Source: Blastococcus sp. LR1
GTDB taxonomy: Bacteria > Actinomycetota > Actinomycetes > Mycobacteriales > Geodermatophilaceae
NCBI RefSeq assembly: GCF_020166105.1
Contig: NZ_JAIUJY010000006.1
Coordinates: forward strand, 1 to 64,000
Length of the DNA: 64,000 bases
Direction: 5' to 3'
A program made the position numbers and the translations under genes. Under the pieces are notes generated by a model, which worked only from the letters and a program-made list of their open reading frames with translations, searched no databases and was not told the origin of the DNA. Below, piece after piece: positions 5,379-64,000 of the stretch; the stretch's first letter is position 1; each line of letters begins with the position of its first letter.

Positions 5379-5387
5379 ATTCACCTC

Positions 5388-14235: not shown

Positions 14236-14240
14236 GGCCG

Positions 14241-15931: not shown

Positions 15932-15959
15932 CCCGGTCCGCGGTGCGTCGGTCCGCGTC

Positions 15960-46497: not shown

Positions 46498-46641
46498 GAA
46501 CTGTCAGTGCCGACCGATAGACAGCAGTTCGAGCAGTTACCGATCGCGGCTCTTCCCCAGCCCCGGATCCAGCACCGCGCAGCCCGGCTGCGCAGCCCCG
46601 CGAAGCACCACGCGACACACGACCAGGGAGAGCTCCACACC

Positions 46642-49521
46642 ATGACCGAGACCGACGACCGCTTGGCCGGCACCCGCGCACGGCGTTCCAGCAAGGCGCC
46701 CAGCCGCAAGGGCCTGAAGATCAAGCGCGTCTTCACCACCGCCGGTGTGCACCCGTACGACGAGGTGACCTGGGAGCGCCGCGACGTCGTCATGACCAAC
46801 TGGCGTGACGGCTCGATCAACTTCGAGCAGCGCGGCGTCGAGTTCCCCTCCGAGTGGAGCATCAACGCCACCAACATCGTCACCACGAAGTACTTCCGTG
46901 GCGCGGTGGGCCAGCCGCAGCGCGAGACGAGCCTGCGTCAGCTCATCGACCGCGTGGTGCTCACCTACACGGAGGCCGGCCGCGAGCACGGCTACTTCGC
47001 CACCGAGGGCGACGCCGAGATCTTCGAGCACGAGCTGACCTGGATGCTGCTGCACCAGTACTTCAGCTTCAACAGCCCCGTGTGGTTCAACGTCGGCACG
47101 AGCGCCCCGCAGCAGGTCAGCGCCTGCTTCATCCTCGCCGTCGACGACGAGATGGACTCGATCCTCAACTGGTACCGCGAGGAGGGCCTGATCTTCAAGG
47201 GCGGCTCCGGTGCCGGCCTGAACCTCTCCCGCATTCGCTCCTCCAAGGAGCTGCTCTCCTCCGGTGGCACCGCCTCCGGCCCGGTCTCCTTCATGCGCGG
47301 TGCCGACGCCTCCGCCGGGACCATCAAGTCCGGTGGCGCCACCCGCCGCGCGGCGAAGATGGTCGTCCTCGACATCGACCACCCGGACATCGAGGAGTTC
47401 ATCGAGACCAAGGCGCGCGAGGAGAACAAGATCCGCGCGCTGCGCGACGCCGGCTACGACATGGACCTCGGTGGCAAGGACATCACCAGCGTCCAGTACC
47501 AGAACGCCAACAACTCCGTCCGCGTCTCCGACGAGTTCATGCGCGCCGTCGAGGAGGGCACCGACTTCGGTCTGCGCGCCCGCATGGACGGTTCGGTGCT
47601 CGAGACCGTCGACGCCAAGGGCCTGTTCCGCAAGGTGACCCAGGCGGCGTGGGAGTGCGCCGACCCGGGTATCCAGTACGACGACACGATCAACGACTGG
47701 CACACCAACCCCGAGACCGGCCGCATCAACGCGTCCAACCCGTGCTCGGAGTACATGAGCCTGGACAACAGCTCGTGCAACCTGGCGTCCCTGAACCTCA
47801 TGAAGTTCCTCAAGGCCGACGGCACGTTCGACTCGAAGAACTTCGTCAAGGCCGTCGAGCTGGTCATCACCGCGATGGACATCTCGATCTGCTTCGCCGA
47901 CTTCCCGACCGCCCCCATTGGTGAGACCACCCGCGCCTACCGCCAGCTGGGCATCGGCTACGCCAACCTCGGCGCGCTGCTCATGGCGACCGGCCACGCC
48001 TACGACTCGCGTGGTGGCCAGACCCTGGCCGCGGCCATCACCTCCCTGATGACCGGCACCGCCTACCGCCGCTCGGCCGAGCTCGCCGGCATCGTGGGCG
48101 CCTACGAGGGCTTCGCCCGCAACGCCGACGCCCACGCCCGGGTCATGCGCAAGCACGCCGCCGCGAACGACGCCATCCGCCCGGTCGGCGCGGACGACGC
48201 CGACGTGCTCAAGGCCGCCACCCAGCAGTGGCAGGAGTGCCTGGAGATCGGCGCCGACAACGGCTGGCGCAACGCGCAGGCCTCGGTGCTGGCCCCCACC
48301 GGCACCATCGGCTTCATGATGGACTGCGACACGACCGGCATCGAGCCGGACTTCTCGTTGGTCAAGTTCAAGAAGCTGGTCGGCGGCGGCTCCATGCAGA
48401 TCGTCAACCAGACGGTGCCCCGCGCGCTCCGCAGCCTGGGCTACCAGGAGGAGCAGATCGAGGCGATCGTCGAGTACATCGCCGAGCACGGCCACGTCGT
48501 GGACGCCCCGACCCTGCGTCCCGAGCACTACGAGGTCTTCGACTGCGCGATGGGCGAGCGGGCCATCTCCCCGATGGGCCACGTCCGCATGATGGCCGCG
48601 GTCCAGCCCTTCATCTCCGGCGCGATCAGCAAGACGGTCAACATGCCGGAGACGGCGACCGTCGAGGACGTCGAGACCATCTACTTCCAGGGCTGGAAGA
48701 TGGGCCTCAAGGCGCTGGCCATCTACCGCGACAACTGCAAGGTGGGCCAGCCGCTGTCCGGCGGCAAGGGCAAGAACGACGGCACCACCGCCGAGGTCAA
48801 GATGGAGGCCCCCGCCTCCAACGAGCTCTCCCACCCGGTGCGCAAGCGGCTGCCGAAGAAGCGGACGAGCGTCACCACCTCGTTCAGCGTCGCCGGTGCC
48901 GAGGGCTACATGACCGCCGGTATGTACGAGGACGGCAGCCTCGGTGAGGTCTTCCTGAAGCTCGGCAAGCAGGGCTCGACCCTGGCCGGTGTCATGGACG
49001 CCTTCTCGATCGGCATCTCGCTGGCGCTGCAGCACGGTGTGCCGCTGGAGACCTACATCTCCAAGTTCACCAACATGCGCTTCGAGCCGGCCGGCATGAC
49101 CGACGACCCGGACATCCGGATCGCCCAGTCGGTGATGGACTACATCTTCCGTCGCCTGGCGCTGGACCACCTGCCCGTCGACAAGCGGGCCGGCCTCGGC
49201 ATCTTCACCGCCGAGGAGCGCGCCGCGCAGGTCGCGGGCAGCTACGGCTCGTCGGCCTCGACCGCCACCGTGCAGGAGGAGGAGGTCGACCTGGAGCAGC
49301 TGCGTGGCTCCGCGCCGATCGAGACCGCCAAGGTGGAGGAGAAGGTCACCCCCGCGGGCCCGAAGTCGGTCAAGGAGGCCCACTCCTCGGCCGAGCTGCT
49401 CGAGCTGGTCACCGGGACCGCCACCGACGCGCCGCTGTGCATGACCTGCGGCACGAAGATGCGCCCGGCCGGCAGCTGCTACGTCTGCGAGGGCTGCGGC
49501 TCCACCAGCGGCTGCAGCTGA
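46642..49521 (+). CDS. nrdJ: Vitamin B12-dependent ribonucleotide reductase (class II)
   Basis: A 959-aa adenosylcobalamin-dependent reductase making dNTPs. Active-site region NASNPCSEYMSLDNSSCNLASLN carries catalytic Cys and Glu, the substrate loop APTGTIGFMMDCDTTGIEPDFSL is intact, and the redox cysteines are in the C-terminal LCMTCGTKMRPAGSCYVCEGCGSTSGCS zinc-like tail. The ATG at 46642 is chosen; the frame is open upstream. It is the last clearly housekeeping gene before the accessory island. Confidence 0.96.
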   Translation: MTETDDRLAGTRARRSSKAPSRKGLKIKRVFTTAGVHPYDEVTWERRDVVMTNWRDGSINFEQRGVEFPSEWSINATNIVTTKYFRGAVGQPQRETSLRQLIDRVVLTYTEAGREHGYFATEGDAEIFEHELTWMLLHQYFSFNSPVWFNVGTSAPQQVSACFILAVDDEMDSILNWYREEGLIFKGGSGAGLNLSRIRSSKELLSSGGTASGPVSFMRGADASAGTIKSGGATRRAAKMVVLDIDHPDIEEFIETKAREENKIRALRDAGYDMDLGGKDITSVQYQNANNSVRVSDEFMRAVEEGTDFGLRARMDGSVLETVDAKGLFRKVTQAAWECADPGIQYDDTINDWHTNPETGRINASNPCSEYMSLDNSSCNLASLNLMKFLKADGTFDSKNFVKAVELVITAMDISICFADFPTAPIGETTRAYRQLGIGYANLGALLMATGHAYDSRGGQTLAAAITSLMTGTAYRRSAELAGIVGAYEGFARNADAHARVMRKHAAANDAIRPVGADDADVLKAATQQWQECLEIGADNGWRNAQASVLAPTGTIGFMMDCDTTGIEPDFSLVKFKKLVGGGSMQIVNQTVPRALRSLGYQEEQIEAIVEYIAEHGHVVDAPTLRPEHYEVFDCAMGERAISPMGHVRMMAAVQPFISGAISKTVNMPETATVEDVETIYFQGWKMGLKALAIYRDNCKVGQPLSGGKGKNDGTTAEVKMEAPASNELSHPVRKRLPKKRTSVTTSFSVAGAEGYMTAGMYEDGSLGEVFLKLGKQGSTLAGVMDAFSIGISLALQHGVPLETYISKFTNMRFEPAGMTDDPDIRIAQSVMDYIFRRLALDHLPVDKRAGLGIFTAEERAAQVAGSYGSSASTATVQEEEVDLEQLRGSAPIETAKVEEKVTPAGPKSVKEAHSSAELLELVTGTATDAPLCMTCGTKMRPAGSCYVCEGCGSTSGCS

Positions 49522-49529
49522 TGACCGCA

Positions 49530-49610
49530 GTCACGAATAGTGCACAGCGTTGTCGCGAATAGTGCACACATTGTCAGTGATAGTGCACTCCGCTGTCAGG
49601 AGTAGTGCAC
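49530..49610 (+). repeat. Four phased 16-bp repeats (putative transposon-end binding sites)
   Basis: Cores GTCACGAATAGTGCAC (49530), GTCGCGAATAGTGCAC (49552), GTCAGTGATAGTGCAC (49573) and GTCAGGAGTAGTGCAC (49595) share GTC-x6-TAGTGCAC and begin 22, 21 and 22 bp apart, two helical turns each. This begins 9 bp after the nrdJ stop. Ordered, same-strand, two-turn-spaced sites are typical of transposase-binding arrays at ends of Tn7-, Tn5053- and IS21-like elements; it is not a CRISPR (spacers of only 5-6 bp). Confidence 0.85.
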
Positions 49611-49635
49611 GGCAATCGCTGGCAGCGTGACAAGG

Positions 49636-49672
49636 CTGAGGGGCGAGGTCCGCACAGGATCTCGCCCCTCAG
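49636..49672 (+). terminator. Hairpin downstream of nrdJ and the repeat array
   Basis: 12-bp perfect stem (49636-49647 and 49661-49672) with a 13-base loop. It may be the nrdJ terminator displaced from its gene by the repeat array, or part of the inserted element. Confidence 0.6.
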
Positions 49673-49729
49673 TCCATTCAGAGGGATGCGCGGTTGGCGT
49701 GTAGGGCGACCTGGCCCCATGCGGTCGCC

Positions 49730-51688
49730 GTGGACGACGTCAGCAGGGAAGGACTCGGAGACGGGACCGCAGAGACGGTGTTTGAGGATTCGCACGCGAG
49801 CATGGGTACGGAAGACCTACTGCGCGGTTTGGCCTTCGCCTTGCAGGAGTGCGCGGAAGGGGCACCCGCGGCACTACCTCTCGCGCCTCTCGTCGGGGAG
49901 GTCGAGGTTTGGCTCACGTCGGCCCGGGACGAATCCTGGCGCAGAAGCGATAACCGTGAATCTCTGAAGCAGGAGGTTCTTGCTAGCCAGAAATCCGTGG
50001 CACCGGCGCTTGGTGCGCATCTTGGGGCGGACCTGACCACCTACGTTGCCGACATCCTGGCAGCGCTCGCTCGCACGGATCGAGCCGTCGCCGAGAAGGC
50101 GAGGCTCGTGACTGCCACGAACACGTTGAGGACTCGGCTGGCTCAGCCCGCTGCACTCGCGGCCTCGTGGGTGGACCTGGGATCCGCGGTCAAGGCTCTC
50201 GACTTCTTCGCTGCTGCCGCCACGGTGATGCAACTGGAGGCGCAACTGAACTTGACCCACCGCGACGGCAAGCACGTGCTGGACGAGGTGCGGAACATCC
50301 TCCGGCGAGACTCTTGGACCGTCGAGTTCGCTAGACAGCGACTCGGCGATGTGCCGCAACGACCGCCCATCGAGTTCGACAAGGACGAGCCGCTGGACAT
50401 TGCTCCGGCCGAGGTCCTGGACCTGGCCTCCCGTTCTCTTGTGGAACCGGGCAAGGACGGTCACGCAGTGGTCTGGGGCATGTATGACAGGGCAGCAGTA
50501 GAGGGCACGGCCGAAGTTGGCCCCATCACGGCGTACTTCGCCCCATGGGTGATCGCCCGAGCCTTCGACACAGAGGAGCAGTCACCACTCCTCGCCGAAG
50601 TGCGCAACCTCTGGCACGCCAGGCGCGACCACGAGTCCAATGAGGACCTCCGTGGACATGTGCTTGTTCGAGTCGACCTAGGAGTTCGGACTCCCGTGGG
50701 AGCACTCGACGACGGAATCGACCTCGTAGAAGCCTTGATGGACGCCGTCCTGAGCCTTGGCTCGAACAACCGATGGGGCAAACCGAAGTGGTGGACGCTT
50801 CTCGTGGACGGGGAGGAGATGCGGAGCATCCTCAGCCGTGGGAGCAAGCGGCCGGAGTTTGAGGACTCCCTAGGCATGGAGAACGCAGCGCGCGTACTGG
50901 CGCGCGAATCGCAGACGCTTGGCCGGGCCTTTCTACACCCGCTGCCTTGGCATCTCCGGGAGGCCCTCCGGAGTTGTGCCGAGGCATCGCACGCGGAGTC
51001 GCGAGCGGTCTCCTTGTATCGAGAGTGGCACAACGATGAGCGCACGGTGCTACTACTACTCGACGCGGCGCTCGAACACATGGCCGCGCTGGGCGACACA
51101 AGTGCCAATCAACTTGTCGAGAGGATCGCAGAACTGTGGCCAAGTTCCGGCCGCACCCGTCTGATCCTCTGGGCGATCGACCTTTGCCTCCACCGAAGGG
51201 ACGGCCTGTCGCGGCCCTCCGATGCGGCGAAGGACCTCAAACGACGGATCGTGGCCAATCGGGACGGCCTAACGGAGACGTCGCTCCTCCGGGCGTACTA
51301 CCTCCTCAATGACCTGATAGGGGTCTGCTCCTCGCCGCTGCAAGCGGCGGTCGTCCGACGGCTGATTGGCCAACTCGGTGACCTGACGGTCTACGAGCAC
51401 GAGGAGTCAAGGCTCCAGGATGAGGCTCGACTCACCCGTACGAGGCAACGGCGAGTCCGGAATGCACTTACGCATGGGAACCCCGTCACGCGACCCGTCC
51501 TTGTGTCTGTGCTCCCGTTCACCAGGTTCCGCACGGTCATGGCGATCCGCGCCGGACTCGACTCAATCAACGAGGGGGTCACCTTCTTGGACTACCTGGA
51601 CGCCAAGGCAGCAGAGCGCATGGAAGACGCGAGCCTCAAGGCGCAAGGTCAGTCGCTCATCTCGATCTGGGAGTCGCGGGAGCCCTAA
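49730..51688 (+). CDS. Large unknown island protein with a C-terminal R-N-x3-H motif
   Basis: About 652 aa from the GTG at 49730; TTG at 49694 and ATG at 49802 are other possible starts. Mostly alpha-helical, no membrane segment. Near the C-terminus (51458-51475) it has RVRNALTHGNP, matching the HEPN-type R-x4-H ribonuclease motif with Asn after Arg. A central block ALDDGIDLVEALMDAVLSLGSNNRWGKPKWWTLLVDGEEM is unassigned. Codons such as AAT, CTT and TTT, rare in the core genes, point to foreign origin. No known family recognised. Confidence 0.75.
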   Translation: MDDVSREGLGDGTAETVFEDSHASMGTEDLLRGLAFALQECAEGAPAALPLAPLVGEVEVWLTSARDESWRRSDNRESLKQEVLASQKSVAPALGAHLGADLTTYVADILAALARTDRAVAEKARLVTATNTLRTRLAQPAALAASWVDLGSAVKALDFFAAAATVMQLEAQLNLTHRDGKHVLDEVRNILRRDSWTVEFARQRLGDVPQRPPIEFDKDEPLDIAPAEVLDLASRSLVEPGKDGHAVVWGMYDRAAVEGTAEVGPITAYFAPWVIARAFDTEEQSPLLAEVRNLWHARRDHESNEDLRGHVLVRVDLGVRTPVGALDDGIDLVEALMDAVLSLGSNNRWGKPKWWTLLVDGEEMRSILSRGSKRPEFEDSLGMENAARVLARESQTLGRAFLHPLPWHLREALRSCAEASHAESRAVSLYREWHNDERTVLLLLDAALEHMAALGDTSANQLVERIAELWPSSGRTRLILWAIDLCLHRRDGLSRPSDAAKDLKRRIVANRDGLTETSLLRAYYLLNDLIGVCSSPLQAAVVRRLIGQLGDLTVYEHEESRLQDEARLTRTRQRRVRNALTHGNPVTRPVLVSVLPFTRFRTVMAIRAGLDSINEGVTFLDYLDAKAAERMEDASLKAQGQSLISIWESREP

Positions 51689-51820: not shown

Positions 51821-52504
51821 CTAGATGTCGAAGGCGTAAGCGGCGTCGTCCGTGAGTCGGACCCGTTCGCCGACGCCGCTGCCGACAGTGATGGCGCCGC
51901 GGTTGGAGAGGGCGCCGAGTCGGGACATGTGGCCCTTTGGGAGGTCAGTGCTGGACAGGGTGCCCCGGTAGGTGGCGTAGAGGATCCGGGCTGTGGCGTG
52001 GTCTATGCCGTCGTCGGCTTCCTTGTAGGTCGTGAGCCGGTCGAGTGCGAGTGCGGCGCGTTGGTCGGCGGGTCGGATGGTCACGCCCATGGCGTTGCGG
52101 TGGATGCCCAGGCCGAGTGGGAGCAGGTGCGCGTCCAGTGCGGTGATGGCGTCACGGAGCCGGTCAAGATCCCAGCCGAGCGCCAGCGCGAGGCGGTCCT
52201 CAGGATGCATCTGCTTCTGGGCCTGGAGGACCTGTGCGAGGACAGTGACGTCGTCCGCGGGGGTGTCATCGGGCTCGTCGAGAAGTTGAGGATCGAAGAG
52301 CGCGCCCATGGTCATGCCCGCTTCGAGGGCGGCGCGGCGCAGGTCGGCGATGCTCACGCTGCCGTTGATCTCGTTCCTCAGGAGCATGCCCCGGACCGCG
52401 GCGTCGCCGAGCCCGGACCTGTCGGCGTAGGCCCGGTCGCTCAGCCTTGAGGAAAGAAGCCGCTCGCGAAGGGCGGCGCCGTTGACGGGGACGGTGGCGG
52501 TCAT
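51821..52504 (-). CDS. Putative DNA-binding protein (HTH plus winged-helix-like)
   Basis: A 227-aa protein from the ATG at 52504, which overlaps the stop of the 410-aa gene (ATGA). Residues ~8-65 look like an HTH domain (LRERLLSSRLSDRAYADRSGLGDAAVRGMLLRNEINGSVSIADLRRAALEAGM), and residues ~125-165 (LDRLRDAITALDAHLLPLGLGIHRNAMGVTIRP) resemble a second winged helix. No known family is assigned. It is last of a minus-strand trio starting with a TniB-like fragment. Confidence 0.7.
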   Translation of the reverse strand: MTATVPVNGAALRERLLSSRLSDRAYADRSGLGDAAVRGMLLRNEINGSVSIADLRRAALEAGMTMGALFDPQLLDEPDDTPADDVTVLAQVLQAQKQMHPEDRLALALGWDLDRLRDAITALDAHLLPLGLGIHRNAMGVTIRPADQRAALALDRLTTYKEADDGIDHATARILYATYRGTLSSTDLPKGHMSRLGALSNRGAITVGSGVGERVRLTDDAAYAFDI

Positions 52505-53733
52505 GCGGCAACCTCCGGGGTCTGCTGGTCCGGCTCGCTGGTTGGGAGGGCGCTGCCAACCAGGGGAAGGAGTGCCACGCCGAGCCTGTTTTGCCAACGG
52601 TCGGCCTTCTTTGCTTCGGCCGGAACGTGATTGGTAGGGGCGGGCAGGTTCAGTTCAGCGCCAATCCGACGCAAGGCGTAGGTCACGTGGGCTCGGGACT
52701 CGGCGATCAGTGGGTCGGCAGGGTCGGAGCCCGTGTGGAGCCGGTAGGCCCGCTGTGCGTTGAGGTAGAGGAGCGCGTCGGGGAGCATCGGGGAATGCGG
52801 CACGGTAGGGGTGCCGTCGTCGCTGATCTGGTCGATTCGGAGGGCGTGAAGGTCCTCCTTGCTGAGGTTGGCGTCGTAGAGGACTGCGGCGGCTGATCGC
52901 CAGCATGTGCGGTAGGCGCGTAGTGACCGAACCTCGGCGGGAGTCATGCGGCGGTGTTCGGCGGCGGCCACGCCGTGCAAGAGCGTGTCGACGTTGACCT
53001 TGAGAAGCATGCCCCGCGTGAAGAGGGCGGCTTGTGCTGCCCGGGCGATGGTGAGGGCTTCGCCGGGGGTGCGGTGTTGCGCGATGAGCGTCGTGAGTGC
53101 GGTTGCTGCCTGTTCCTCTGACTCCGGTGGATCGTCGGCGATGGCCGTGAAGGTGTTGCGGTAGAGGCGGTCGACGAGGGTGAACTGCTCGGGCCGGAGG
53201 ACGTCGCGGACACGGGAGCGGAACGCGTAAAACTCGACCCGAGGTAGGTACCGCGGATAGTCGGGCGCGGCGTCCGACGGCATGGCCGGAAGCGAGCGGG
53301 CCGCTTCGGCGATCAGTGTCTTCAGCGCTGCGTGCTCGCTGATGGTGCCGTCGCGGGCGGTAACCCAGTCAGCGAGGTGCTCGCCGCCGGTGTCGTCACA
53401 GGTGAGGACGAGTCCGGCACCGACGCTCGCGCAGAGGTGGCTGAGGTCGTCGAGGATGTCAGGGCTCGTGATGGTGTCGGCGTGGCGGATAACGAGGAGG
53501 CGGGTCTCGTAGGCGGTCAGCCAGGCACGGGCGTATTCGAGGTCTTCGCCGTGGCGGCGGCCGGATCCATTGAGGTCGTGGTCGATGCCGAGCGCGGCGA
53601 GCAAGTCCTGGCCGATCGCCCACGCGTGGCGGGTCGGCCGGGCGGTGAAGGTGACGATCCCGCTGGCGGGGTCGGTCGGCGGCAGTAGCGTGCGGCTGGG
53701 CTGTCCGGCAGGAAGTGGGACTAGAACGGGCAT
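52501..53733 (-). CDS. Unknown 410-aa protein with degenerate AAA-like and integrase-like regions
   Basis: The N-terminal ~150 residues (RLLVIRHADTITSPDILDDLSHLCASVGAGLVLTCDDTGGEHLADWV) have the layout of a TnsC/TniB ATPase core around Walker B, but no Walker A is seen and the Walker B acids are replaced (VIRHAD). The C-terminal half (CWRSAAAVLYDANLSKEDLHALRIDQISDDG ... LPDALLYLNAQRAYRLHTGSDP) has the helix pattern of a tyrosine-recombinase catalytic domain without the usual Arg-His-Arg-Tyr set. Both similarities are by eye and uncertain. It starts 36 bp after the TniB-like fragment's stop. Confidence 0.65.
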   Translation of the reverse strand: MPVLVPLPAGQPSRTLLPPTDPASGIVTFTARPTRHAWAIGQDLLAALGIDHDLNGSGRRHGEDLEYARAWLTAYETRLLVIRHADTITSPDILDDLSHLCASVGAGLVLTCDDTGGEHLADWVTARDGTISEHAALKTLIAEAARSLPAMPSDAAPDYPRYLPRVEFYAFRSRVRDVLRPEQFTLVDRLYRNTFTAIADDPPESEEQAATALTTLIAQHRTPGEALTIARAAQAALFTRGMLLKVNVDTLLHGVAAAEHRRMTPAEVRSLRAYRTCWRSAAAVLYDANLSKEDLHALRIDQISDDGTPTVPHSPMLPDALLYLNAQRAYRLHTGSDPADPLIAESRAHVTYALRRIGAELNLPAPTNHVPAEAKKADRWQNRLGVALLPLVGSALPTSEPDQQTPEVAA

Positions 53734-53769: not shown

Positions 53770-54216
53770 TTAGCGCGGCATCGTGCGGCGGATCTGAGCA
53801 AGGTCATCCGATGTGACCGCGCTGGTGATCTCGAAGCGGTTCAACCAGCGGACGGTCTGAACCCAGCGGCGCAGGAGCCCGGCGCAGGCGGCTTCGTTGT
53901 GCTGAGCGAGCACCCGCTTCGGCGTAGCGGCGAACCGGTCATCGAGGTGCTGGACGGCGGTGATGAGTTCTTCGCCGTGCAGGGGCGCGAAGGTGACCGC
54001 GCCCATGATCCGGCTGTGCAACTGGGGGCGCTTCTTGGCGGCGTCCAGGACGCCCGTGCCGACGACTGCGAGGCCGAATGCGTGGTCGGTCTCTTCGTAG
54101 AGCCAGACGAGTTCCTGGAGGGCGTTCTCCTGGGTGTTCTGCAACTCGTCGATGATCAGGACGCCACCCCAGGTGGAGAAGAGCGCACTTGTGGACGAAA
54201 AAGCGTCGGCAGCCAT
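53770..54216 (-). pseudogene. Truncated TniB/TnsC-like transposition ATPase
   Basis: A 148-aa fragment that begins in the middle of an AAA ATPase: ALFSTWGGVLIIDELQN holds Walker B, followed by the sensor region LAVVGTGVLDAAKKRPQLHSRIMGAVTFAPL and a helical lid ending in ITSAVTSDDLAQIRRTMPR. Walker A and everything before it are missing; the open frame stops at 54216 where the oppositely oriented PtuA-like gene begins. TniB/TnsC proteins select target DNA for DDE transposases. Assignment to the TniB/TnsC side of the AAA family is an inference. Confidence 0.68.
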
Positions 54217-55096
54217 GGTGGGGGATTACCACTTTCAAGCGGCTGACGAGCACGGAACTTTCGCCAACCTTGTCTCGGTGTCCTTTAGTGCCTTCGATGA
54301 TGCGGAACCCCTGCCCGCCTCTCGCAGCAGGATGAAGTCCGGCGTCCGCTACACCTACGTCGGCTTGAAGGTGCAGCGGCACCCGGATGACGACCGACGT
54401 ACGACCACCACGAAGCCGCCGTCGACCCTTTCGCGAGAGTTCGGCGAAAGTGTCGACGAGTGCACCACCGGCGTCCGGCTCCGGCGATGGCAGCAGGCCC
54501 TTCGCGCCCTCGAAGGCGACCCGATCTTCGCCGAGGCCAACGTCTCGCGCCTCGCCGAACGCCGAGGCGATGACATCCGGAAGGACGCGCAGCGGCTGTT
54601 CAACAACCTCAGTTCCGGTCACAAGATCGTTCTTCTGAGCATCACTCGTCTCGTCGAGAGCGTGGAAGAGCGCACCTTGGTCCTGCTCGACGAGCCCGAA
54701 GCCCACCTTCACCCCCCGCTGCTCTCGGCGTTCATCAGGGCGCTCTCCGACCTGCTCATCGATCGGAACGGAGTGGCCCTGATCGCCACTCACTCTCCTG
54801 TGGTTCTCCAGGAAGTGCCGCGAAGTGCAGTCTGGAAGTTGAGGCGCGCGGGACGCATCGTGAACGCCGAGCGGCCGGAGATCGAGACCTTCGGCGAGAA
54901 CGTCGGCATCCTCACCAGAGAAGTTTTTGGCCTGGAAGTTTCACAGTCCGGCTTCCATCGAATGCTCCAGGATGCAGCCGAAGAGGGATTGTCGTACGAC
55001 GAGATCGTCGACCGCTTCGGCGGAGCCCTTGGAGGCGAAGCCCGATCGCTGGCTCAGGCGTTGGTAGCGGTTCGTGACGCAAGGGCCGCTCGCTAG
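54215..55096 (+). CDS. PtuA-like ATPase of a Septu-type defence pair, 5'-truncated
   Basis: About 293 aa from the ATG at 54215. The ABC-type ATPase C-terminal half is complete: signature LSSGHKIVLLSI, Walker B TLVLLDEPEAHLHPPLL and switch LIATHSPVVLQEV. The N-terminus starts near the strand NLVSVSFSAFDD that normally follows the P-loop, so Walker A is absent. In-frame codons KSALVDEK just upstream (about 54183) could be the broken end of a P-loop but merge into the TniB fragment. Immediately followed (TAG-GTG) by an HNH gene, the PtuA-PtuB order. Confidence 0.75.
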   Translation: MVGDYHFQAADEHGTFANLVSVSFSAFDDAEPLPASRSRMKSGVRYTYVGLKVQRHPDDDRRTTTTKPPSTLSREFGESVDECTTGVRLRRWQQALRALEGDPIFAEANVSRLAERRGDDIRKDAQRLFNNLSSGHKIVLLSITRLVESVEERTLVLLDEPEAHLHPPLLSAFIRALSDLLIDRNGVALIATHSPVVLQEVPRSAVWKLRRAGRIVNAERPEIETFGENVGILTREVFGLEVSQSGFHRMLQDAAEEGLSYDEIVDRFGGALGGEARSLAQALVAVRDARAAR

Positions 55097-55948
55097 GTGT
55101 GGAGCGTCCAGAGGCCCGCAATCAGTACGAGCGACGCCTACCTGACCGTTGCTAGGGCGACGAAGAAGGTTGAACTTCGAGGTCGTTACGTCGCGGCCGA
55201 GCCAGCGGTGGTGTCTGCCGCCACTGTCTTCGAGGCGGCGGTAGCCAGCGGCGCGACGCACGGCCTGGATCCCGCTGACTTCAAGGTTCCTCGGGTCACT
55301 GACGGCGAGATGGTCGACCTCTACGACCTGCGCCTAGTGGACACCGAGCGCGGCCGCGCCATTTACGAGGCGATCAAGGCCGCCCCGGAGTACGGCCGGT
55401 GTCCCCTCTGCGGTCAGCAGCCTGTCACCACGCTGGACCACCACTTGCCGAAGGCCGTCTTTGCCGCGCTGACCGTGGTGCCGACGAATCTCGTTCCTGC
55501 CTGCAAGGACTGCAACCATGCCAAGGGTCACGCAGTCGGCGGTTCCCCGGCTGACGAGCCCATCCACCCATACTTCGACATCCCCGACGACGACCCCTGG
55601 CTCACAGCGGTAGTGCTTGAGCGGACCCCACCTGCACTTCTCTTCAGCGTCACGCCGCCGTCTGAATGGCCAAGCAGTCTGGTCAGCCGAGTGGAGAAGC
55701 ACTTCGAGCGGTTCGGGCTGGACGCGATGTACGGCGCTCTCGCTGCCACAGAGTTGTCCAACATCAAGGGCGACCTCCGCCGTGTCCTTCAGTCCGGGGG
55801 GCCCTCCGAAGGACCGGCGATGGTTCGCCTGCGACTCGAAGAGGCCGCCGAAAGTCGGCGCGAGGCCCGGGTCAACAGTTGGCAGACGGCCATGTACACG
55901 GCGGTGGCCGCCAACCCTTGGTACTACTCGGGCGGCTTCCTCAACTAG
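55097..55948 (+). CDS. PtuB-like HNH endonuclease of a Septu-type defence pair
   Basis: A 283-aa HNH nuclease: zinc cysteines C102/C105 (CPLCGQ) and C136/C139 (CKDCNHAKG), with D114-H115-H116 (LDHHLPKAVF) and N140-H141 completing the beta-beta-alpha metal site. In Septu, PtuB is the nuclease activated with the PtuA ATPase against phage. The GTG starts directly after the PtuA stop, so the two are coupled. The C-terminal ~150 residues are of unknown role. Confidence 0.82.
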   Translation: MWSVQRPAISTSDAYLTVARATKKVELRGRYVAAEPAVVSAATVFEAAVASGATHGLDPADFKVPRVTDGEMVDLYDLRLVDTERGRAIYEAIKAAPEYGRCPLCGQQPVTTLDHHLPKAVFAALTVVPTNLVPACKDCNHAKGHAVGGSPADEPIHPYFDIPDDDPWLTAVVLERTPPALLFSVTPPSEWPSSLVSRVEKHFERFGLDAMYGALAATELSNIKGDLRRVLQSGGPSEGPAMVRLRLEEAAESRREARVNSWQTAMYTAVAANPWYYSGGFLN

Positions 55949-56033
55949 CGACCGCGCCGTAGACGGCGGCGTCAGCCCACCGCGATTCCGAGCCTCCTGG
56001 CCTGTCGTAGGTACCGGCTAGCCTCCACGGTCA

Positions 56034-56072
56034 CCCCGCTCCGGCCCTGATGACAGCAGGGCTGGAGCGGGG
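56034..56072. terminator. Hairpin after the Septu-like pair
   Basis: 16-bp stem (56034-56049 and 56057-56072) with a single mismatch and a seven-base loop, 86 bp past the HNH stop and before two convergent minus-strand genes. Confidence 0.7.
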
Positions 56073-56123
56073 CCTCGACCACGAACAAGGGGAGGCGGTG
56101 AAGGCCCCTCCGGGGTGGAATCG

Positions 56124-56351
56124 CTAGGACCCCGGCGGTTCGTCGAACCACCTATGGGCCTGTCGACGGACGACTCGGTCTACGGCCTGGTCCCTGAGCC
56201 TCGCCCGCTCCGAGGCAGCGAGAGCCGCCCGCTCCTCCGGAGTCGTACGTGCGTCCACCAGCGCATCCGAGCGGTCGACGCGCAGCGCGAACGAGAGGTG
56301 CAGACCCGGCTCGCACGCTTCAACCAAGCGGATCAGGACGCCGACCGGCAC
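56124..56351 (-). CDS. Putative 75-aa hypothetical protein
   Basis: A short frame from GTG at 56351 (VPVGVLIRLVEACEPGLHLSFALRVDRSDALVD...) ending in TAG at 56124, 65 bp after the 439-aa gene's stop on the same strand. The acidic/basic helix TPEERAALAASERARLRDQAVDRVVRRQAHRW suggests a small helical protein. The frame is open further upstream across the 439-aa gene, so the start is uncertain. No family recognised. Confidence 0.4.
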   Translation of the reverse strand: MPVGVLIRLVEACEPGLHLSFALRVDRSDALVDARTTPEERAALAASERARLRDQAVDRVVRRQAHRWFDEPPGS

Positions 56352-56416
56352 ATCCCGCTCGCCACCGACGCACGCCTCTGAGCCCGGCGGCGTACGTCGT
56401 CTCTGACCTGCGACCG

Positions 56417-57736
56417 TCAGCCGGACGGCCAGTTCGGCAGGACCGCATGGACATGGCCGCCCCAGGCTGCTGGCTCCTCGTCGGGTCCCCTCTCCGGGGG
56501 CAAGGGACCGTCGTAGAACCACTCGGACGGCGGCGCACCTACCGCCCCGATCCCAAGGCACCAACCGCTCACTGTCCGGCGCCAGGCCCACCAAGACTGG
56601 CCGTCGGAGCCGACATCCATCTCAATCCCGTGTTCGGCAGGCAGTCCGTCTTTGATGAACTGCTGCTGAACCAGGGGCAGGATGTCGCTTCGGTAGTGGC
56701 CATAGCGGCGATGCGACATCGTTTGGCTGAGCCACAGCGACTTGAGGGCCAGTTTCGTGGCCACGAACTCGCGCCGGTCCCGACGGCGGCCCTGCTCGTC
56801 GACCTCGTCAGAGCCTGCCCACTTGGCCTCCCGTGCGGCCTGCCGTTTGTCTACTTCCGTGCGGACGAGGGGTTGCGCCCACTCGACCAAGGCTTGGAGC
56901 AGCACGAAAGCCTTCACGGAGTTGATCCGTGTGTCGTAGCCGAGTTCTCGGCCGTGCAGGGTGGCGTGCCTGCTTAGGGAGCCTTCGCTGGCTGTGTAGT
57001 CCATCCCGGCCGAGTAGAGGTCGCGGACAACTGGGAGAGACTCGTTCAGCGTGGCGATGGTCCGCTCGTCGACTACGTCAGCCTTTCGATCGTCCCTTCC
57101 TGAGAAGAACAATTTTCCGCCGGTCACGTCGGCTACCAGGCCCTCGATCTGAGCGAGCAAGATAGGTATGGACGCCTCGTATGCCCCGGCGCGATGGTGC
57201 TCGAATGCCTTGGTGAGCAGGCGGGATCGGCGGAAAAACAAGTCGTTGTAGTCGGTTTCCGGCCGCCCGAGCACGCTGATCTGCTGGATGGGTCGCCGCA
57301 GGCGGTGCTCGTTGTCCCATGCTTCGACAAGGACTTGCTCGGCTGCCTCTGGCCCATCGGAAGCAAGCACCTGGACGGCGCGGGCGTAGTCGCGCATGGG
57401 CATTGAGCCTGACGGCGCCCATCCGAGGGGGGCAAACACGCGTATGGCCTCTGCTCCCCCTCGGTGAAGGGCGGCGATCTGGGATCGCACCTTCGTAGCG
57501 TCGTCAAGGTTCACGCCGAGCGATCGCAGCACCCGCACCAGCCCGGGAATGCTGGTGACGGCATCGAACGCCTCAACCGACTCGCTAGTCCGCCCGCTGG
57601 GGTCGAGCGCTGCGGCAAGGCGCTGCTCCAGCGGTTTGGAGGGACCAGTTGATGCGTTGGATTCGGCGTTGCGCTTCTGCCGCCTCCGTTGTCTGCGACT
57701 GGGTTCTGGCTTGTTAGGACCGTGTCGATCGGTCAC
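56417..57736 (-). CDS. Island protein with HEPN-like R-x4-H motif
   Basis: A 439-aa protein. Basic N-terminus (KPEPSRRQRRRQKRNAES), then an all-helical body: FEHHRAGAYEASIPILLAQIEGLVADVTG and, at 56954-56971 on the minus strand, RHATLHGRELGYDTRINSVKAFVLLQALVEWAQ, where RHATLHG fits R-x4-H of HEPN-like folds. The C-terminus has WWAWRRTVSGWCLGIGAVG. Similar all-helical proteins with an RHxxLHG helix accompany abortive-infection loci, but function is not proven. Confidence 0.7.
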   Translation of the reverse strand: MTDRHGPNKPEPSRRQRRRQKRNAESNASTGPSKPLEQRLAAALDPSGRTSESVEAFDAVTSIPGLVRVLRSLGVNLDDATKVRSQIAALHRGGAEAIRVFAPLGWAPSGSMPMRDYARAVQVLASDGPEAAEQVLVEAWDNEHRLRRPIQQISVLGRPETDYNDLFFRRSRLLTKAFEHHRAGAYEASIPILLAQIEGLVADVTGGKLFFSGRDDRKADVVDERTIATLNESLPVVRDLYSAGMDYTASEGSLSRHATLHGRELGYDTRINSVKAFVLLQALVEWAQPLVRTEVDKRQAAREAKWAGSDEVDEQGRRRDRREFVATKLALKSLWLSQTMSHRRYGHYRSDILPLVQQQFIKDGLPAEHGIEMDVGSDGQSWWAWRRTVSGWCLGIGAVGAPPSEWFYDGPLPPERGPDEEPAAWGGHVHAVLPNWPSG

Positions 57737-57922
57737 TTGCCTAGCGCCCCCATCCCATGCGTTCTCGGGCCATGGTTTGCCGCACGGTTCCTCGCCCGAT
57801 CCTCGACTGGCGATGAGCGTTCGCTCGGCATCGCGTCACCGCTCCAGCGTTGCATCGGGATCGCCCGGGTCTGACTCCCGCGACGACGGGTGAGAACCTC
57901 AACGGCATGGTCAAACTCGGGC

Positions 57923-58702
57923 TCAATGGTCGAGTCGGCCTCCGGGTTCCAAGGGTGTAGCCCAGGCGCCCTGATCGCGGATTTCCTGGCGCAGAGCACG
58001 CACCTCGGCCATCAGCGCGTCCACGTGGGCGACCGTCGCCGCACGCTCGGTGGCGTTCTCGTCCCTGACCCGGTCCACCAACCAGGAGGCGAGGGTGGCG
58101 GTGACGATGCCGAGTAGTGCGATGCCCGCCACCATCAGGCCGACGGCGATGAAGCGGCCCCCGGTCGTTGTGGGGTATCGGTCTCCGTAGCCAACGGTCG
58201 TGATGGTGGTTACTGCCCACCACACGGCATCGCCGAGCGTCGTGATGTTGGCGTCCGGCGCGTTCCGCTCGGCGTCGAGCATGGCCAGGGCCGCGACCCC
58301 GGAGAGCAACGCCGTGGCCCCCACCACGTAGACAGCCACCCGCCCCCGGAGGGAGGCCCCCGCCCGGCGGTTCAGCGCCGTGATGACGGTGACGAGGCGC
58401 AGCAGCCGCAGGGGACGCAAGAGGGGCAGTGCGATGACCGCGAGGTCGTGCAGATGCCGGATGACGTAGCGCCGCCGGTCTTCTACCAAGGCCACCCGGG
58501 CGACGTAGTCGATAGCGAAGATCACCCAGGCGGCCCATGCGACCGCGACGCAGCCACTCCGGACGGTTGCCGGTAGGTCGGGTTCCAAGATGGGCCAGGC
58601 ATAGGCGACCAGGAATGCCACAGCGGCCACCATGAGGGGCCATTCGGCGGCAGCATTCCACCGCTCCACCTGTGATGTCGTGGCCGTACCCTGAGCAGTC
58701 AC
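57923..58702 (-). CDS. Voltage-gated-like potassium channel protein
   Basis: A 259-aa ion-channel protein: helices S1-S4 (with WPLMVAAVAFLVAYAWPIL, VWVIFAIDYVARVALV, and the basic segment RRYVIRHLHDLAVIALPLLRPLRLLRLVTVITALNRR resembling a voltage sensor), a pore loop with selectivity filter TTVGYGDR, then the last helix FIAVGLMVAGIALLGIVTATLASWLVDRV and a coiled tail. The GTG at 58702 is chosen because the upstream frame is not membrane-like. Potassium channels of this type are common in actinobacteria. Confidence 0.9.
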   Translation of the reverse strand: MTAQGTATTSQVERWNAAAEWPLMVAAVAFLVAYAWPILEPDLPATVRSGCVAVAWAAWVIFAIDYVARVALVEDRRRYVIRHLHDLAVIALPLLRPLRLLRLVTVITALNRRAGASLRGRVAVYVVGATALLSGVAALAMLDAERNAPDANITTLGDAVWWAVTTITTVGYGDRYPTTTGGRFIAVGLMVAGIALLGIVTATLASWLVDRVRDENATERAATVAHVDALMAEVRALRQEIRDQGAWATPLEPGGRLDH

Positions 58703-59108
58703 AGTGCAGGAGTGTCGCAGGAACTGGGCCCGGCTCGCTGAGCGTGCGCCTCGTGGGGGGGCTGGCCCCGTGTGAACGCCTCCTGGACGTTCTGCTGGCT
58801 CACCTCCTTGGGGACGAAGGAATCCGGCCCGAAGCCGCCCCGTCGGCGGAACGAGCACTTGCGCGGCAGCCCGACCCGAACCTGGTTGCGCGTCGTGTCG
58901 GCTCGCGACAGACACCCGAACCGCCCAGGACAGCGCTGTCACTAACGCAACTAGTCGGTTGTCGCGGTTACCGTCCCTACGTGCCGCAACCGGCACGGTA
59001 GTTAAGAGCGGCAGGGGAGCGGTGGTGTAGTGACGCAGGTAGCGGAGTTCGGGGACAGGGTCGCCTTCGTCTGGTCGGTCGCAGTCAAGACGACCTCAAC
59101 AAAGCCGT
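58703..59108. other. Intergenic region, no gene identified
   Basis: About 400 bp between the divergent potassium channel and the 503-aa gene. It is the only place for their promoters. I see no tRNA, repeat array or conserved hairpin; short frames present are not gene-like. Confidence 0.6.
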
Positions 59109-60620
59109 GTGACAGTGATGCAATCCGCCCGACCTGGGCTTGAGGTCCGATACGAGGGCGATAAGCGGCTGGTCAGCCTGAGTCAGGTGCTACCAAGCGG
59201 CGAGGAGCGGGTGATCGAGCACGACTACCCCGACGCCCTCACTCACCACTACAAGCCCACCGCGTCCGGTCAAGCCATCCCTCTCTACGTCGGCGGCCTC
59301 CGCTTCAGTGACGACGAGGAAGGCCACGACTGGCACGGCCGAGCCGAGATGGCGTGGTACCCCAGCCCGCGGGTGATGGTTGAGGCGAGCAGGCCGAACA
59401 GGGGTATTGAGGACTTTGTGGGTCTGCGCGCCTCCGGGAAGCGCGAGTGGGTCGAAATGCCGTCCATCAAACTGCCGGGCGAGGAGGTGCCGCTGCCGCC
59501 TCAACCAGACTCACTGTCCGAAGACTCCCGTCCGTCGGGGGTGAGCCGGAATGACCGGCTCACCCCTCAGACCCTGGGCAGTGGGACGGCGCTGAGCCGT
59601 GTCACCTTTCTCATCCCGAACGGCTGGGATGTGCCCAATGGATCCGGAGTATGTGACCCCGAGGACCTCGTTCGGACGTGGAATGGACGCCTCGAAGCGT
59701 TTCCATCCGGGTGGCGAATCACCATCGACCGTCGCCCCGAAGTGAACAAGCAGTTCCTTCGGCGACTCCGCGATGAGAACACGAGTGCTGTAACCCACAT
59801 CGGTCAGATCGCGCGCGCCGACGGCTCCCTGTTCGACGTGGCAGACATCCAACTTCTACTCCAAGCACTGCGCCTTGCCTTCAGCCTCGCGGTAGGGCGG
59901 ACAATCAACTTGCTGCTCCCGGTCGGCTGGTGGGGGGACCAAGCGGTTTGGACGCGCTGGGTAAGCCCGCACATCGACGGTGTGCTCAACACCGGCACAT
60001 TCCTTGACCGGCACAAGGGCAACGAGCAGATGCGTGAACTCATCGAGCGCGTCGTTGACTACTGCCGAACGCCCGAGCGACTGGAAGTCATTCAGTACGC
60101 AACTTCCTACTACGTGACCGCTACGTACGACGTAGACGTCGAACTTGGCGTCGCATTGCCTATCTCGGGCTTGCAGTTGCTTGCATACAACCGGTTCGTT
60201 GAGGAACGGGGCACGCACACCCAGCGTCAGTGGGAGAATCTCAAGCCGACAGAGGCCCAGATCCGTCTGCTCCTGGACGATTGCCGCATGCGCACCAGCG
60301 TCCCGGCCTCTTATCCTCACCTTGCCGAAGTGAGCCGCAGGGCGCAGATGTCCGAGGGAACGCGCACAGCCCGTGATGCTCTGGGTTGCGTCATGTTGCT
60401 CCGCAACAAGATCATTCACCCGACGAGTACGAAGCCGGGCGCCTGGACCGCATACCAATGGGCCGAGGGGAAGGACTACGCCGCCCACTGCTTGCTACTC
60501 GCCATCCTCAACACCGTCGGCTATCGAGGCCAGCACCGGTCGGCCTGGGCAGACGACATATGGGAAGGCGTTACGGACCCCGTGCCGTGGGCAACCGCGA
60601 CTGAGGGGCCGGAGTTCTAA
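59109..60620 (+). CDS. Island protein with C-terminal HEPN-like R-N-x3-H motif
   Basis: A 503-aa protein, GTG at 59109 or ATG at 59118. An N-terminal beta-rich region (up to ~125), a Ser/Pro linker and a helical C-terminal part, where 60402-60419 encode RNKIIHPTSTKPG in the context ALGCVMLLRNKIIHP. This is the canonical HEPN RN-x3-H motif and resembles the layout of ApeA-type phage-defence proteins (beta domain plus HEPN). The specific family is not established. Confidence 0.72.
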   Translation: MTVMQSARPGLEVRYEGDKRLVSLSQVLPSGEERVIEHDYPDALTHHYKPTASGQAIPLYVGGLRFSDDEEGHDWHGRAEMAWYPSPRVMVEASRPNRGIEDFVGLRASGKREWVEMPSIKLPGEEVPLPPQPDSLSEDSRPSGVSRNDRLTPQTLGSGTALSRVTFLIPNGWDVPNGSGVCDPEDLVRTWNGRLEAFPSGWRITIDRRPEVNKQFLRRLRDENTSAVTHIGQIARADGSLFDVADIQLLLQALRLAFSLAVGRTINLLLPVGWWGDQAVWTRWVSPHIDGVLNTGTFLDRHKGNEQMRELIERVVDYCRTPERLEVIQYATSYYVTATYDVDVELGVALPISGLQLLAYNRFVEERGTHTQRQWENLKPTEAQIRLLLDDCRMRTSVPASYPHLAEVSRRAQMSEGTRTARDALGCVMLLRNKIIHPTSTKPGAWTAYQWAEGKDYAAHCLLLAILNTVGYRGQHRSAWADDIWEGVTDPVPWATATEGPEF

Positions 60621-60684
60621 TCATCCCCGCCGGGCTCGGTATCGGTGTCGGGCAACTCAGGGCGAAGCCGGTCCGCGGCGGCGG

Positions 60685-61527
60685 CTAGCCGGGACAAGAC
60701 CCATTCGGCCGGACGAAATCGTTCTCTCGAAGGGTGGGGAAGAAACCACCCCGTCCCGGGCCCCCGGTGTACGCGACGGCGTCTTCTGAAGCGCCGTACG
60801 AGCGATAGGGGCCGATAGTCTTCGTCTGCTTCTCGGGGTCGCCAGCGATGGTGTACCTCACCTCCATCTCCCACTCGTAGTTGGCGTTGCAAGACGTGAC
60901 GTGCACCTGAAGCAACGCGAAGCGGCCTGGCCGCACAGTGAATGCTGATCCTGGGTCCTCAGTGGGGGTCCCCGTAACCACCTCGGGGTTGTCCCCGTCC
61001 CCAATCAATCCGAGGTCCTCGAAGGTGCCGTCATCGAGGTTGTAGTGGTAGGTCCGGTAAGTGTCCCCTCCTCCGCAGCCGCTTTCTGTGTCATAGATCC
61101 AAGTGGGGTCGGCTACCTGGCTCGACAGCCTTCGGGGCTTGACGTCAAAGACTTGGATTGCTTCGCCGTCGGAGGCGACGGAGATCGTCACGTACAGGGT
61201 CCCGGACTCCCACGATCCGCCGCCGGACTCCACGATGGTCGATCGGATGTCTTCCCTCGGGTCATCGGTGCTGGGCAAGTCGTCGATGCTCCGGGATGTA
61301 GCCACGCGGGTGGCCCCGTCGCATCCCTGCACCAGGGGCCATGTGCCCTCAACGGTCGGCTCGTTGTCCTCGCCGAAGACCGCCGAGTAGGCGGACTGGA
61401 TCTTCAGGGGAAGGTCCAGGAGGACCGACAGAGGGGTCGCAACGAGCGCAAGCACGAGAATGGCAGCGACTACCGGATGGCTTTGAACCTTCGCCAGCCA
61501 CCCACGAGGATCGTCACCGACTGCCAT
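60685..61527 (-). CDS. Hypothetical membrane-anchored protein
   Basis: A 280-aa protein with one N-terminal membrane helix (HPVVAAILVLALVATPLSVLLDL, about 17-39) and an acidic extracytoplasmic domain containing several cysteines (QGCDGAT, SGCGGGD, TSCNANYE) that may form disulfides. The family is not recognised. It lies 64 bp after the stop of the 503-aa gene on the opposite strand. Confidence 0.65.
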   Translation of the reverse strand: MAVGDDPRGWLAKVQSHPVVAAILVLALVATPLSVLLDLPLKIQSAYSAVFGEDNEPTVEGTWPLVQGCDGATRVATSRSIDDLPSTDDPREDIRSTIVESGGGSWESGTLYVTISVASDGEAIQVFDVKPRRLSSQVADPTWIYDTESGCGGGDTYRTYHYNLDDGTFEDLGLIGDGDNPEVVTGTPTEDPGSAFTVRPGRFALLQVHVTSCNANYEWEMEVRYTIAGDPEKQTKTIGPYRSYGASEDAVAYTGGPGRGGFFPTLRENDFVRPNGSCPG

Positions 61528-61664
61528 CGCATCCCCTAGTTCACGATCGGTCGAGACGGAGCAGTCTAGGTGTGGAGATGACTCCTGTGTCCCCGGTTGG
61601 CCCGCGGCGGTCAGGGACTACAGGTCCGCCACCTCACAGGGCTGGCGGTTCTCGGTCGCCGTCT

Positions 61665-62762: not shown

Positions 62763-62981
62763 GATTCTCTCGCTTTCCCCTGGGGCCGGTTCGCAGGGCC
62801 TGACGCACGCCCGCAAGTTAGACGTGGCGTCCGACAGTCGCCGTCATCCAGGGCTCCCATGTCTCGCTCCCACCCGGCTTTGTCGGTGCCTCGGTCTAGA
62901 CTCCTGCCACTGGCTTTGGCATCAGGTCTGCCGTCCGGACGCCGACAGCCACGCGCCAAGTAGCCATCGAGAGGGTTCGCG

Positions 62982-63755: not shown

Positions 63756-63910
63756 ACAAGATCCAACGGCAGGTGGCCAAGTCGTCCTTCGGGTCCAAGG
63801 CAGCCACCGCAGCGCGAGCCAGCGTGAGCAGCACCCAGGCAGCCCGCGTGGTGAACCGGGCTGCCCAGATCCGGACAGAAAAAAGTCAGGACAAGCGCGC
63901 CCCGAAATAG
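63752..63910 (+). CDS. Small basic protein coupled to the sigma factor
   Basis: A 52-aa protein, ATG overlapping the sigma factor stop, ending in TAG at 63910. It is basic and helical (NKIQRQVAKSSFGSKAATAARASVSSTQAARVVNRAAQI) with no cysteine or membrane segment. It could be a sigma modulator or an island accessory factor; no family recognised. Bases 63911-64000 hold nothing I can call. Confidence 0.6.
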   Translation: MNKIQRQVAKSSFGSKAATAARASVSSTQAARVVNRAAQIRTEKSQDKRAPK

Positions 63911-64000
63911 ACCCACCGCGACATACAGCCAGTTGGCGACCCCAACGGGAAGCCGACGGGCGGGCCGCTACAACGACCCGACCCGGACCCGAGGTCTATG

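What the first reader, a model, noticed from the sequence alone, without database searches (positions are those of the whole stretch)
53770..55096. Two truncated ATPase genes meet head-to-head, implying a recombination scar near 54.18-54.22 kb
On the minus strand the TniB-like ATPase is cut just before Walker B; on the plus strand the PtuA-like ATPase is cut just after where Walker A should be. Both lose their N-terminal P-loop at the same spot. One deletion or insertion joining two unrelated elements explains both losses. The result is a probably inactive transposition gene next to a damaged defence gene.
Basis: inference. Interest (0 to 1): 0.62.

Follow-up and report, generated by a model that had tools for sequence, protein, structure and literature searches.

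The report
Deletion scar inside ribonucleotide-reductase-homing transposon
Two damaged genes that meet head to head are the scar of a deletion inside a mobile element that sits exactly at the end of a DNA-building-block gene, and related elements use that same landing spot in other bacteria, apparently guided by an unusual targeting protein.

Summary
TniB-like homology ends at 54184 and PtuA-like homology starts at about 54185. Each gene lost its P-loop half. The lost halves and the transposase were not found elsewhere in the genome, and full-length relatives exist (254 aa; frames of about 530-565 aa). The likeliest cause is one internal deletion.

The context is more interesting than the scar. 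Both remnants lie inside a 14.9 kb transposon (contig 49522-64449; the right end is just beyond the window). It has a four-repeat left end, TG...CA termini and a 5-bp duplication (GCTGA) that includes the stop codon of a class II ribonucleotide reductase gene (nrdJ). Of 16 TniB hits in 112 family genomes, 13 (the window's included) lie on the nrdJ contig within about 20 kb of that stop codon. A Nocardioidaceae bin and a genome of another class show the same arrangement.

The operon is tniA(TnsB)-tniB(TnsC)-ORF3-ORF4; no TniQ was found. ORF3 is predicted to be a TnsC/MuB-like fold without a P-loop plus a possible partial tyrosine-recombinase-like domain. I infer, from co-occurrence only, that ORF3 (with ORF4) selects the target. 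It resembles TnsF in idea, not in family. The scar is ordinary; the element is a new variant of a Tn7-type transposon.

The parts
46507..49521 (+). nrdJ, class II (B12-dependent) ribonucleotide reductase; its 3' end is the attachment site
   Evidence: Pfam Ribonuc_red_lgC 5.8e-148, Ribonuc_red_2_N 4.1e-20; DNA match of relatives usually stops at 49521-49528 (64 of the 72 rows counted)
49517..49521 (.). left copy of 5-bp target-site duplication GCTGA (includes nrdJ stop TGA)
   Evidence: right copy at contig 64450-64454, followed by a flank that matches the uninterrupted site of G013 at 63 of 70 positions (300 random controls: at most 48)
49522..49610 (+). transposon left end with four direct repeats TGTCNNNNATAGTGCAC (49529-49545, 49551-49567, 49572-49588, 49594-49610)
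   Evidence: 4 matches with up to 2 mismatches, 0.39 expected, 0 of 100 shuffles with 4 or more
49634..49674 (+). 18-bp-stem hairpin just inside the left end, possibly a replacement terminator for nrdJ
   Evidence: -41.6 kcal/mol for 49630-49690, z -7.4; no T-run, terminator scan negative
49694..51688 (+). cargo ORF, 664 aa, no convincing family
   Evidence: none in Pfam or NCBIfam up to E 0.1; one weak PADLOC match, Cas8g E 0.0079
51821..52504 (-). ORF4, small protein; relatives in some other lineages have a helix-turn-helix (start set by homologue L081)
   Evidence: 74% identity to L081; no Pfam family in the window copy
52501..53733 (-). ORF3, predicted TnsC/MuB-like pseudo-AAA+ domain (residues 1-135) plus possible partial tyrosine-recombinase-like domain; candidate target selector
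53770..54184 (-). tniB remnant (C-terminal part of a 254-aa TnsC/MuB-type ATPase; Walker A half lost)
54184..54185 (.). deletion junction (tniB | ptuA), placed to within about 3 bp
54185..55096 (+). ptuA remnant (C-terminal ~303 aa of a ~535-aa PDC-M01A/PtuA-like ATPase; Walker A half lost)
55097..55948 (+). ptuB-like HNH nuclease (PDC-M01B), apparently whole
   Evidence: HNH 5.3e-4 (below Pfam's cut-off); PADLOC PDC-M01B 2e-90 over residues 1-282 of 283
55949..64000 (.). further cargo between the two ends (low-GC3 genes); right end lies outside the window, last base contig 64449

Best explanation
The junction at 54184/54185 is the scar of one internal deletion in a site-specific TnsB/TnsC-class (Tn7-type) transposon inserted at the stop codon of nrdJ. 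The deletion removed the transposase gene tniA, the P-loop half of tniB, and the P-loop half of a cargo ptuA gene (a Septu-like PDC-M01 system). The transposon is therefore stranded: ends, ORF3 and ORF4 remain, but no transposase of this family was found in the genome. The defence pair is reduced to an ATPase fragment plus an HNH nuclease and is probably dead. Shown here: the breakpoints, the missing halves, the two ends, the 5-bp duplication, and recurrence of the insertion site in relatives. Inferred: a deletion rather than a more complex rearrangement, the former presence of tniA, loss of function, and ptuA being cargo of this element before the event.
For: Coincident breakpoints. Lost halves not found in own genome: best weak hit E 0.0026 for the tniB half and 0.11 for the ptuA half. 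TniA: no match at E <= 0.01 in own genome, while the same search hits 3 of 3 other genomes given (G083, G019, G015; also with a C-terminal piece). Left end with four repeats at the nrdJ stop. Right end followed by GCTGA and a flank like the uninterrupted site of G013, 63 of 70 positions, random controls at most 48; the same right end in G083 at 83% over 112 bp. Element length 14,928 bp. The 13 genes picked between the nrdJ stop and 15.7 kb downstream have GC3 0.74-0.85, the next ones mostly 0.90-0.97. Intact operon ORF4-ORF3-tniB-tniA in the same place in G083.
Against: No strain with this same element intact was found, so the pre-deletion arrangement is not seen directly. The event could have had several steps. 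In G001 and G108 the same right-end type sits with a different (B) left end, so a composite of two elements that lost its middle is not excluded. Reads across the junction were not available.
Confidence: 0.85

Rival explanations
1. Two different transposons once lay in tandem at the nrdJ site; the deletion fused the left (A) element to cargo and right end of a second (B-type) element.
For: The right-end type of the window element also closes elements with B-type left ends in G001 and G108. G083 and G001 share cargo and right end at about 96% DNA identity but have left halves that do not align. A second A-type element in G019 abuts what looks by eye like another element's right end.
Against: G083 carries the A operon with this same right end; no second A-type repeat cluster and no alignable B-type left end (blastn E <= 1e-10) was seen between them, so A left end plus this right end may be one working element. 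No further A repeat is in the window.
Confidence: 0.3
2. Inversion or translocation with breakpoints in both genes.
For: Head-to-head N-terminal losses are what an inversion would leave.
Against: The reciprocal N-terminal halves were not found in a 4.02 Mb assembly listed as 100% complete.
Confidence: 0.04
3. Assembly chimera at 54.18 kb.
For: No reads could be examined.
Against: The joint is unique in the genome; each remnant gave one match in its own genome; the lost halves are not stranded on another contig.
Confidence: 0.04
4. The short forms are natural, working proteins (shortened TnsC-like regulator; PtuA without P-loop).
For: Both remnants are open reading frames without frameshift or stop; tniB remnant dN/dS 0.16-0.23 is far below 1.
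Against: No homologue seen starts there; the first ~10 and ~16 codons of the two ORFs are antisense to the other gene; remnant dN/dS is about twice that of three intact pairs (0.06-0.11), as expected from some relaxation.
Confidence: 0.04

Closest known systems
Tn7 (attTn7 downstream of glmS; TnsD-guided; from the abstract of PMC2918618 in listings, and recall)
   Same: TnsB-type DDE transposase, TnsC-type ATPase, arrays of repeats at the end, 5-bp duplication (recalled for Tn7), insertion at the 3' end of a conserved gene without breaking it
   Different: Target is nrdJ and insertion is at the stop codon; no TniQ/TnsD found; TnsA not looked for
Tn6022 with TnsF (Faure et al. 2023, PMC10293859; abstract, found passages and sections 8 and 11 read)
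   Same: A target-selector candidate with an incomplete tyrosine-recombinase-like domain in the transposition operon
   Different: TnsF has N-terminal zinc fingers, works with TniQ and targets comM; ORF3 has a TnsC/MuB-like N-domain, no TniQ partner found, and sits at nrdJ
Actinobacterial clade of Tn7-like transposons (Benler et al. 2021, PMC8649781; found passages and section 5 read)
   Same: Same host phylum, same kind of element, defence cargo; that clade is stated there as not experimentally characterised
   Different: 'Ribonucleotide reductase' does not occur in its main text; whether these very elements are in its set was not testable (supplements not read)
Septu / PADLOC PDC-M01 (PtuA ATPase + PtuB HNH)
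   Same: Remnant and HNH partner match PDC-M01A and PDC-M01B strongly
   Different: ATPase lacks its P-loop half here

Membership tests
Tn7-like transposons | TnsB-type DDE transposase | tested here: met
   TniA profile vs PDB: ShTnsB E 7.6e-21; Mu-transpos_C 1.7e-4 over its cut-off, rve 0.0038 below its cut-off. tniA is missing from the window element; tested in relatives
Tn7-like transposons | TnsC-type AAA+ ATPase | tested here: met
   TniB profile: MuB 1.4e-7, ShTnsC 3.8e-4; general AAA+ ATPases score in between. MuB scores above TnsC, so a Mu-type origin is open
Tn7-like transposons | arrays of repeats at ends, TG...CA termini, 5-bp duplication | tested here: met
   duplication seen in own element and G083, and CAGCTGA behind the right end in G001 and G108. 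Left- and right-end repeats are only loosely alike
Tn7-like transposons | TniQ/TnsD (called ubiquitous in the Tn7 branch by PMC10293859) | tested here: not met
   0 of 15 genomes over PF06527 cut-off, 1 of 15 with a sub-threshold match, off the nrdJ contig in G015; no TniQ match in the ORF3/ORF4 proteins scanned up to E 1. None of the 14 control genomes scored over cut-off, so there is no positive control and a far-diverged TniQ could be missed
Tn7-like transposons | TnsA endonuclease | not tested
   no dedicated search was made
TnsF (Tn6022) | tyrosine-recombinase-like domain lacking the catalytic chamber | tested here: inconclusive
   full model residues 260-372 vs Cre Z 7.4; domain alone: first 17 Foldseek rows are Cre, Tre or Xer entries but best E 0.045 and pLDDT 66.8; VIA best recombinase Z 5.3, below a designed helical protein at 6.9
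TnsF (Tn6022) | N-terminal zinc fingers; operon partner TniQ; comM target | tested here: not met
   N-terminal fold is TnsC/MuB-like, Z 9.8; no TniQ; site is nrdJ
Septu/PDC-M01 | PtuA ATPase with P-loop plus PtuB HNH | tested here: not met
   PtuB present; P-loop half of PtuA lost

The most novel reading that the evidence does not exclude
A family of Tn7-type transposons in Actinomycetota homes to the stop codon of nrdJ without TniQ. Target choice is made by ORF3, a fusion of a dead TnsC-like subunit, which could dock into the TnsC ring or filament, and a dead tyrosine-recombinase-like DNA-binding domain, helped by the helix-turn-helix protein ORF4. Different lineages keep the same site while exchanging whole 'left end plus operon' modules against a shared cargo and right end.
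Probability: 0.42. Interest if true: 0.78.

Novelty: new variant of a known kind. Interest (0 to 1): 0.6.

Why it matters
The scar itself is ordinary decay of a mobile element. If the context reading holds, it gives a new attachment site (class II ribonucleotide reductase) and a TniQ-independent way to guide a Tn7-type transposase, which bears on how such transposons recruit target selectors. It would also explain why variable, partly defence-related cargo collects behind nrdJ in this family.

Tried and rejected
Own-genome searches for the lost halves and TniA: nothing convincing. Plasmid collection with the TniB remnant: no match. TniB at class level, E <= 1e-25: 1 of 394 genomes, the window's own. 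tRNA as attachment site: none in window. Inverted copies of the left-end repeat as right end: none in window nor as a cluster in the longer stretches; the right end was found instead through its match to G083. A self-similarity score for left ends passed the 99% background level in only 10 of 89 genomes and missed the window's own end, so it is a weak test. One search used a wrong reading frame for the nrdJ tail; redone. A search for right-flank sites used a pattern partly drawn from the window's own flank, so its exact match there is circular; the flank was compared anew with nine uninterrupted-looking sites (51 to 65 of 70 positions; random controls at most 48). Profile comparison of ORF3 with TniB found no sequence similarity (probability 0.1), so the TnsC-likeness of ORF3 rests on predicted structure alone. 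The ORF3 profile against PDB sequences gave nothing significant (best E 0.16). Foldseek gave no match at E <= 0.001 for either model. Literature: searches returned no paper; some searches were seen as listings (45, 74 and 112 only the first 15, 15 and 10 of 497, 802 and 30) and showed none whose title or abstract start links Tn7-like elements with nrdJ or class II ribonucleotide reductase; PMC6546240 holds all four terms and was not opened. Only PMC open-licence papers are searched. PMC10293859 and PMC8649781 were read in part.

Full report
OBSERVATION. The two ORFs are as described. The minus-strand ORF is the C-terminal part of a TniB-like ATPase. Three relatives match at 77-78% identity; the two whose ORFs I listed, L003 and L005, have 254 aa with GPPGTGKTT in the half that is missing here. 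The DNA alignments to L004 and L005 end at 54184 (L003 ends at 54171). The plus-strand ORF is the C-terminal part of a PtuA-like ATPase (PADLOC PDC-M01A). Its closest family relative L019 has 535 aa with GRNGVGKT and aligns from residue 230 on, at about 54185. The next ORF, 55097-55948, is the HNH partner. In 394 class genomes, 10 had a PtuA match at E <= 1e-30; none of the others begins at the window's break (two have a stop inside, G428 is in two pieces, G254 gave only residues 420-531).

CAUSE. The lost tniB half and ptuA half were not found elsewhere in the genome (G000 is listed as 100% complete in 10 contigs). TniA gave no match in G000 at E <= 0.01 while the same search hit G083, G019 and G015. 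This argues against inversion and for a deletion of at least about 2.8 kb (330 bp of tniB, 1.8 kb of tniA, 0.65-0.7 kb of ptuA; my sum from relatives, assuming the usual gene order). At the joint the sequence reads AAGAGC|GCACTT; relatives read AAGAGCCG on the tniB side (L004, L005) and CGGGCACT on the ptuA side (L019), so any microhomology is at most a few bases. The tniB remnant is free of stops; its dN/dS against three intact relatives is 0.16-0.23, while three intact pairs give 0.06-0.11, and ORF3 shows no such rise (0.21-0.22 against 0.22). I read this as a not very old loss with some relaxation.

CONTEXT: A TRANSPOSON AT nrdJ. In the family-wide DNA search, the match of relatives usually stops at the end of nrdJ (49521-49528 in 64 of the 72 rows that I carried on). 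Some run further, to about 49675; among them G041, G042 and G085 have the same type of left end. Directly behind the stop codon lie four copies of TGTCNNNNATAGTGCAC (expected 0.39; 0 of 100 shuffles reach four). The right end was found about 450 bp beyond the window: GATTCGACA ending at contig 64449, then GCTGA. The flank behind it matches the uninterrupted site of G013 at 63 of 70 positions (300 random stretches: at most 48; eight other uninterrupted-looking sites 51-65). So the element is 14,928 bp (49522-64449), with TG...CA termini and a 5-bp duplication GCTGA that holds the nrdJ stop codon. Core genes resume at about contig 65.2 kb.

THE SITE RECURS. One search (TniB remnant against 112 family genomes) gave 16 places in 14 genomes. 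Comparing these with nrdJ positions: 13, the window's included, lie on the nrdJ contig within about 20 kb. One (G085) is on a short contig; the nrdJ contig of G085 ends in a left end and an ORF3 fragment, so I infer one split element. One (G019 C192) abuts a GCTGA next to what looks by eye like another element's right end, a tandem. One weak hit (G001 C4, E 1.5e-6) is elsewhere. I then read the sequence behind nrdJ in 89 of the 108 genomes. Genomes without a usable 3' end in the listing were left out, and the first 17 loci were chosen partly because they had hits. TniA or TniB (E <= 1e-8) within 12.5-20 kb (less where contigs ended) was found in 14 of 89 (in G042 only a small tniB fragment), in all 14 on the strand facing nrdJ. 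Lineages with different repeats start at the same stop codon. Outside the family, a Nocardioidaceae bin (L111) and G710 of another class show the same arrangement. Beyond those, 394 class genomes gave no TniB match at E <= 1e-25 apart from the window, so the elements are rare.

ORF3. Of the 12 TniA places in 8 of 396 phylum genomes, I fetched 6 places in 6 genomes. The one with ORF3 (G710) lies at nrdJ; the five without a detectable ORF3 have no nrdJ within the 9-19 kb fetched. In the survey, ORF3 was found with tniB in 13 of the 14 genomes with TniA or TniB, the exception being the G042 fragment. This is a small sample and co-occurrence only. No TniQ was found in the ORF3/ORF4 proteins scanned or over cut-off in 15 genomes (no positive control). 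AlphaFold gives ORF3 mean pLDDT 72.6. Residues 1-135 match TnsC/MuB best: the first 11 of the 50 VIA rows shown are TnsC or MuB, Z 9.8 to 7.9; the next row, another AAA+ protein (origin recognition), has 7.8, so the separation from AAA+ in general is modest. The sequence has no P-loop, and profile comparison with TniB sees nothing. Residues 260-373 match tyrosine recombinases at Z about 7. Folded alone the domain is poor (pLDDT 66.8): the first 17 Foldseek rows are Cre, Tre or Xer entries but weak (best E 0.045), and by VIA a designed helical protein (Z 6.9) beats the best recombinase (5.3). In the alignment no residue like the first catalytic arginine of Cre (recalled) is conserved, and the domain ends early (my reading). 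ORF4 relatives of lineages C, D (fused) and E have a helix-turn-helix; the A copy itself matches none over cut-off.

MECHANISM, MOST LIKELY. ORF3 (with ORF4) reads the conserved 3' end of nrdJ, TniB/TnsC is loaded there, and TniA inserts the element at the stop codon, leaving the nrdJ frame whole. Insertion site and operon are shown; the role of ORF3 is inference. The hairpin just inside the left end may replace nrdJ's terminator; it has no T-run. In the window element this machine is broken by the deletion.

COMPARISON. It works like Tn7 at glmS. By TnsB, TnsC/MuB, ends and duplication it belongs with the Tn7/Mu-type transposons; since TniQ was tested and not found I do not file it as a canonical Tn7-like member. 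TnsF of Tn6022 (PMC10293859, read in part) is the nearest idea: an inactive tyrosine-recombinase protein as selector. It differs in N-domain, partner and target.

Noticed in passing
L081+L099 (G083) 6460-18149 versus L086+L101 (G001) 5276-16956, coordinates counted from the nrdJ stop: Cargo and right end are about 96% identical between the two elements (two blocks) while left ends and tni operons do not align (TniA about 30% aa): a module exchange with a sharp boundary.
   Followed up: partly
window 49634-49674: Very stable hairpin (18-bp stem) directly inside the left end; self-complementary stretches at about the same distance follow the left ends of other lineages, as if each element brings its own end-of-gene hairpin for nrdJ.
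   Followed up: partly
L109 (G019 C192), just before its left end: The A-type left end follows ...TTTTCTCAGCTGA, which looks by eye like the right end of another lineage: tandem insertion at the same GCTGA.
   Followed up: partly
G016, G024, G028, G039, G047, G053, G056, G084, G111 behind nrdJ: By eye, left-end-like repeats at or within a few bases of the nrdJ stop but no TniA/TniB within the stretch read (12.5 kb; 1.8 kb for G016): possible relics.
   Followed up: no
window 57923-58996: Ion-channel-like cargo gene (Ion_trans_2, 3e-17) within the transposon, with ORFs of 439 and 503 aa on either side for which no family was found.
   Followed up: no
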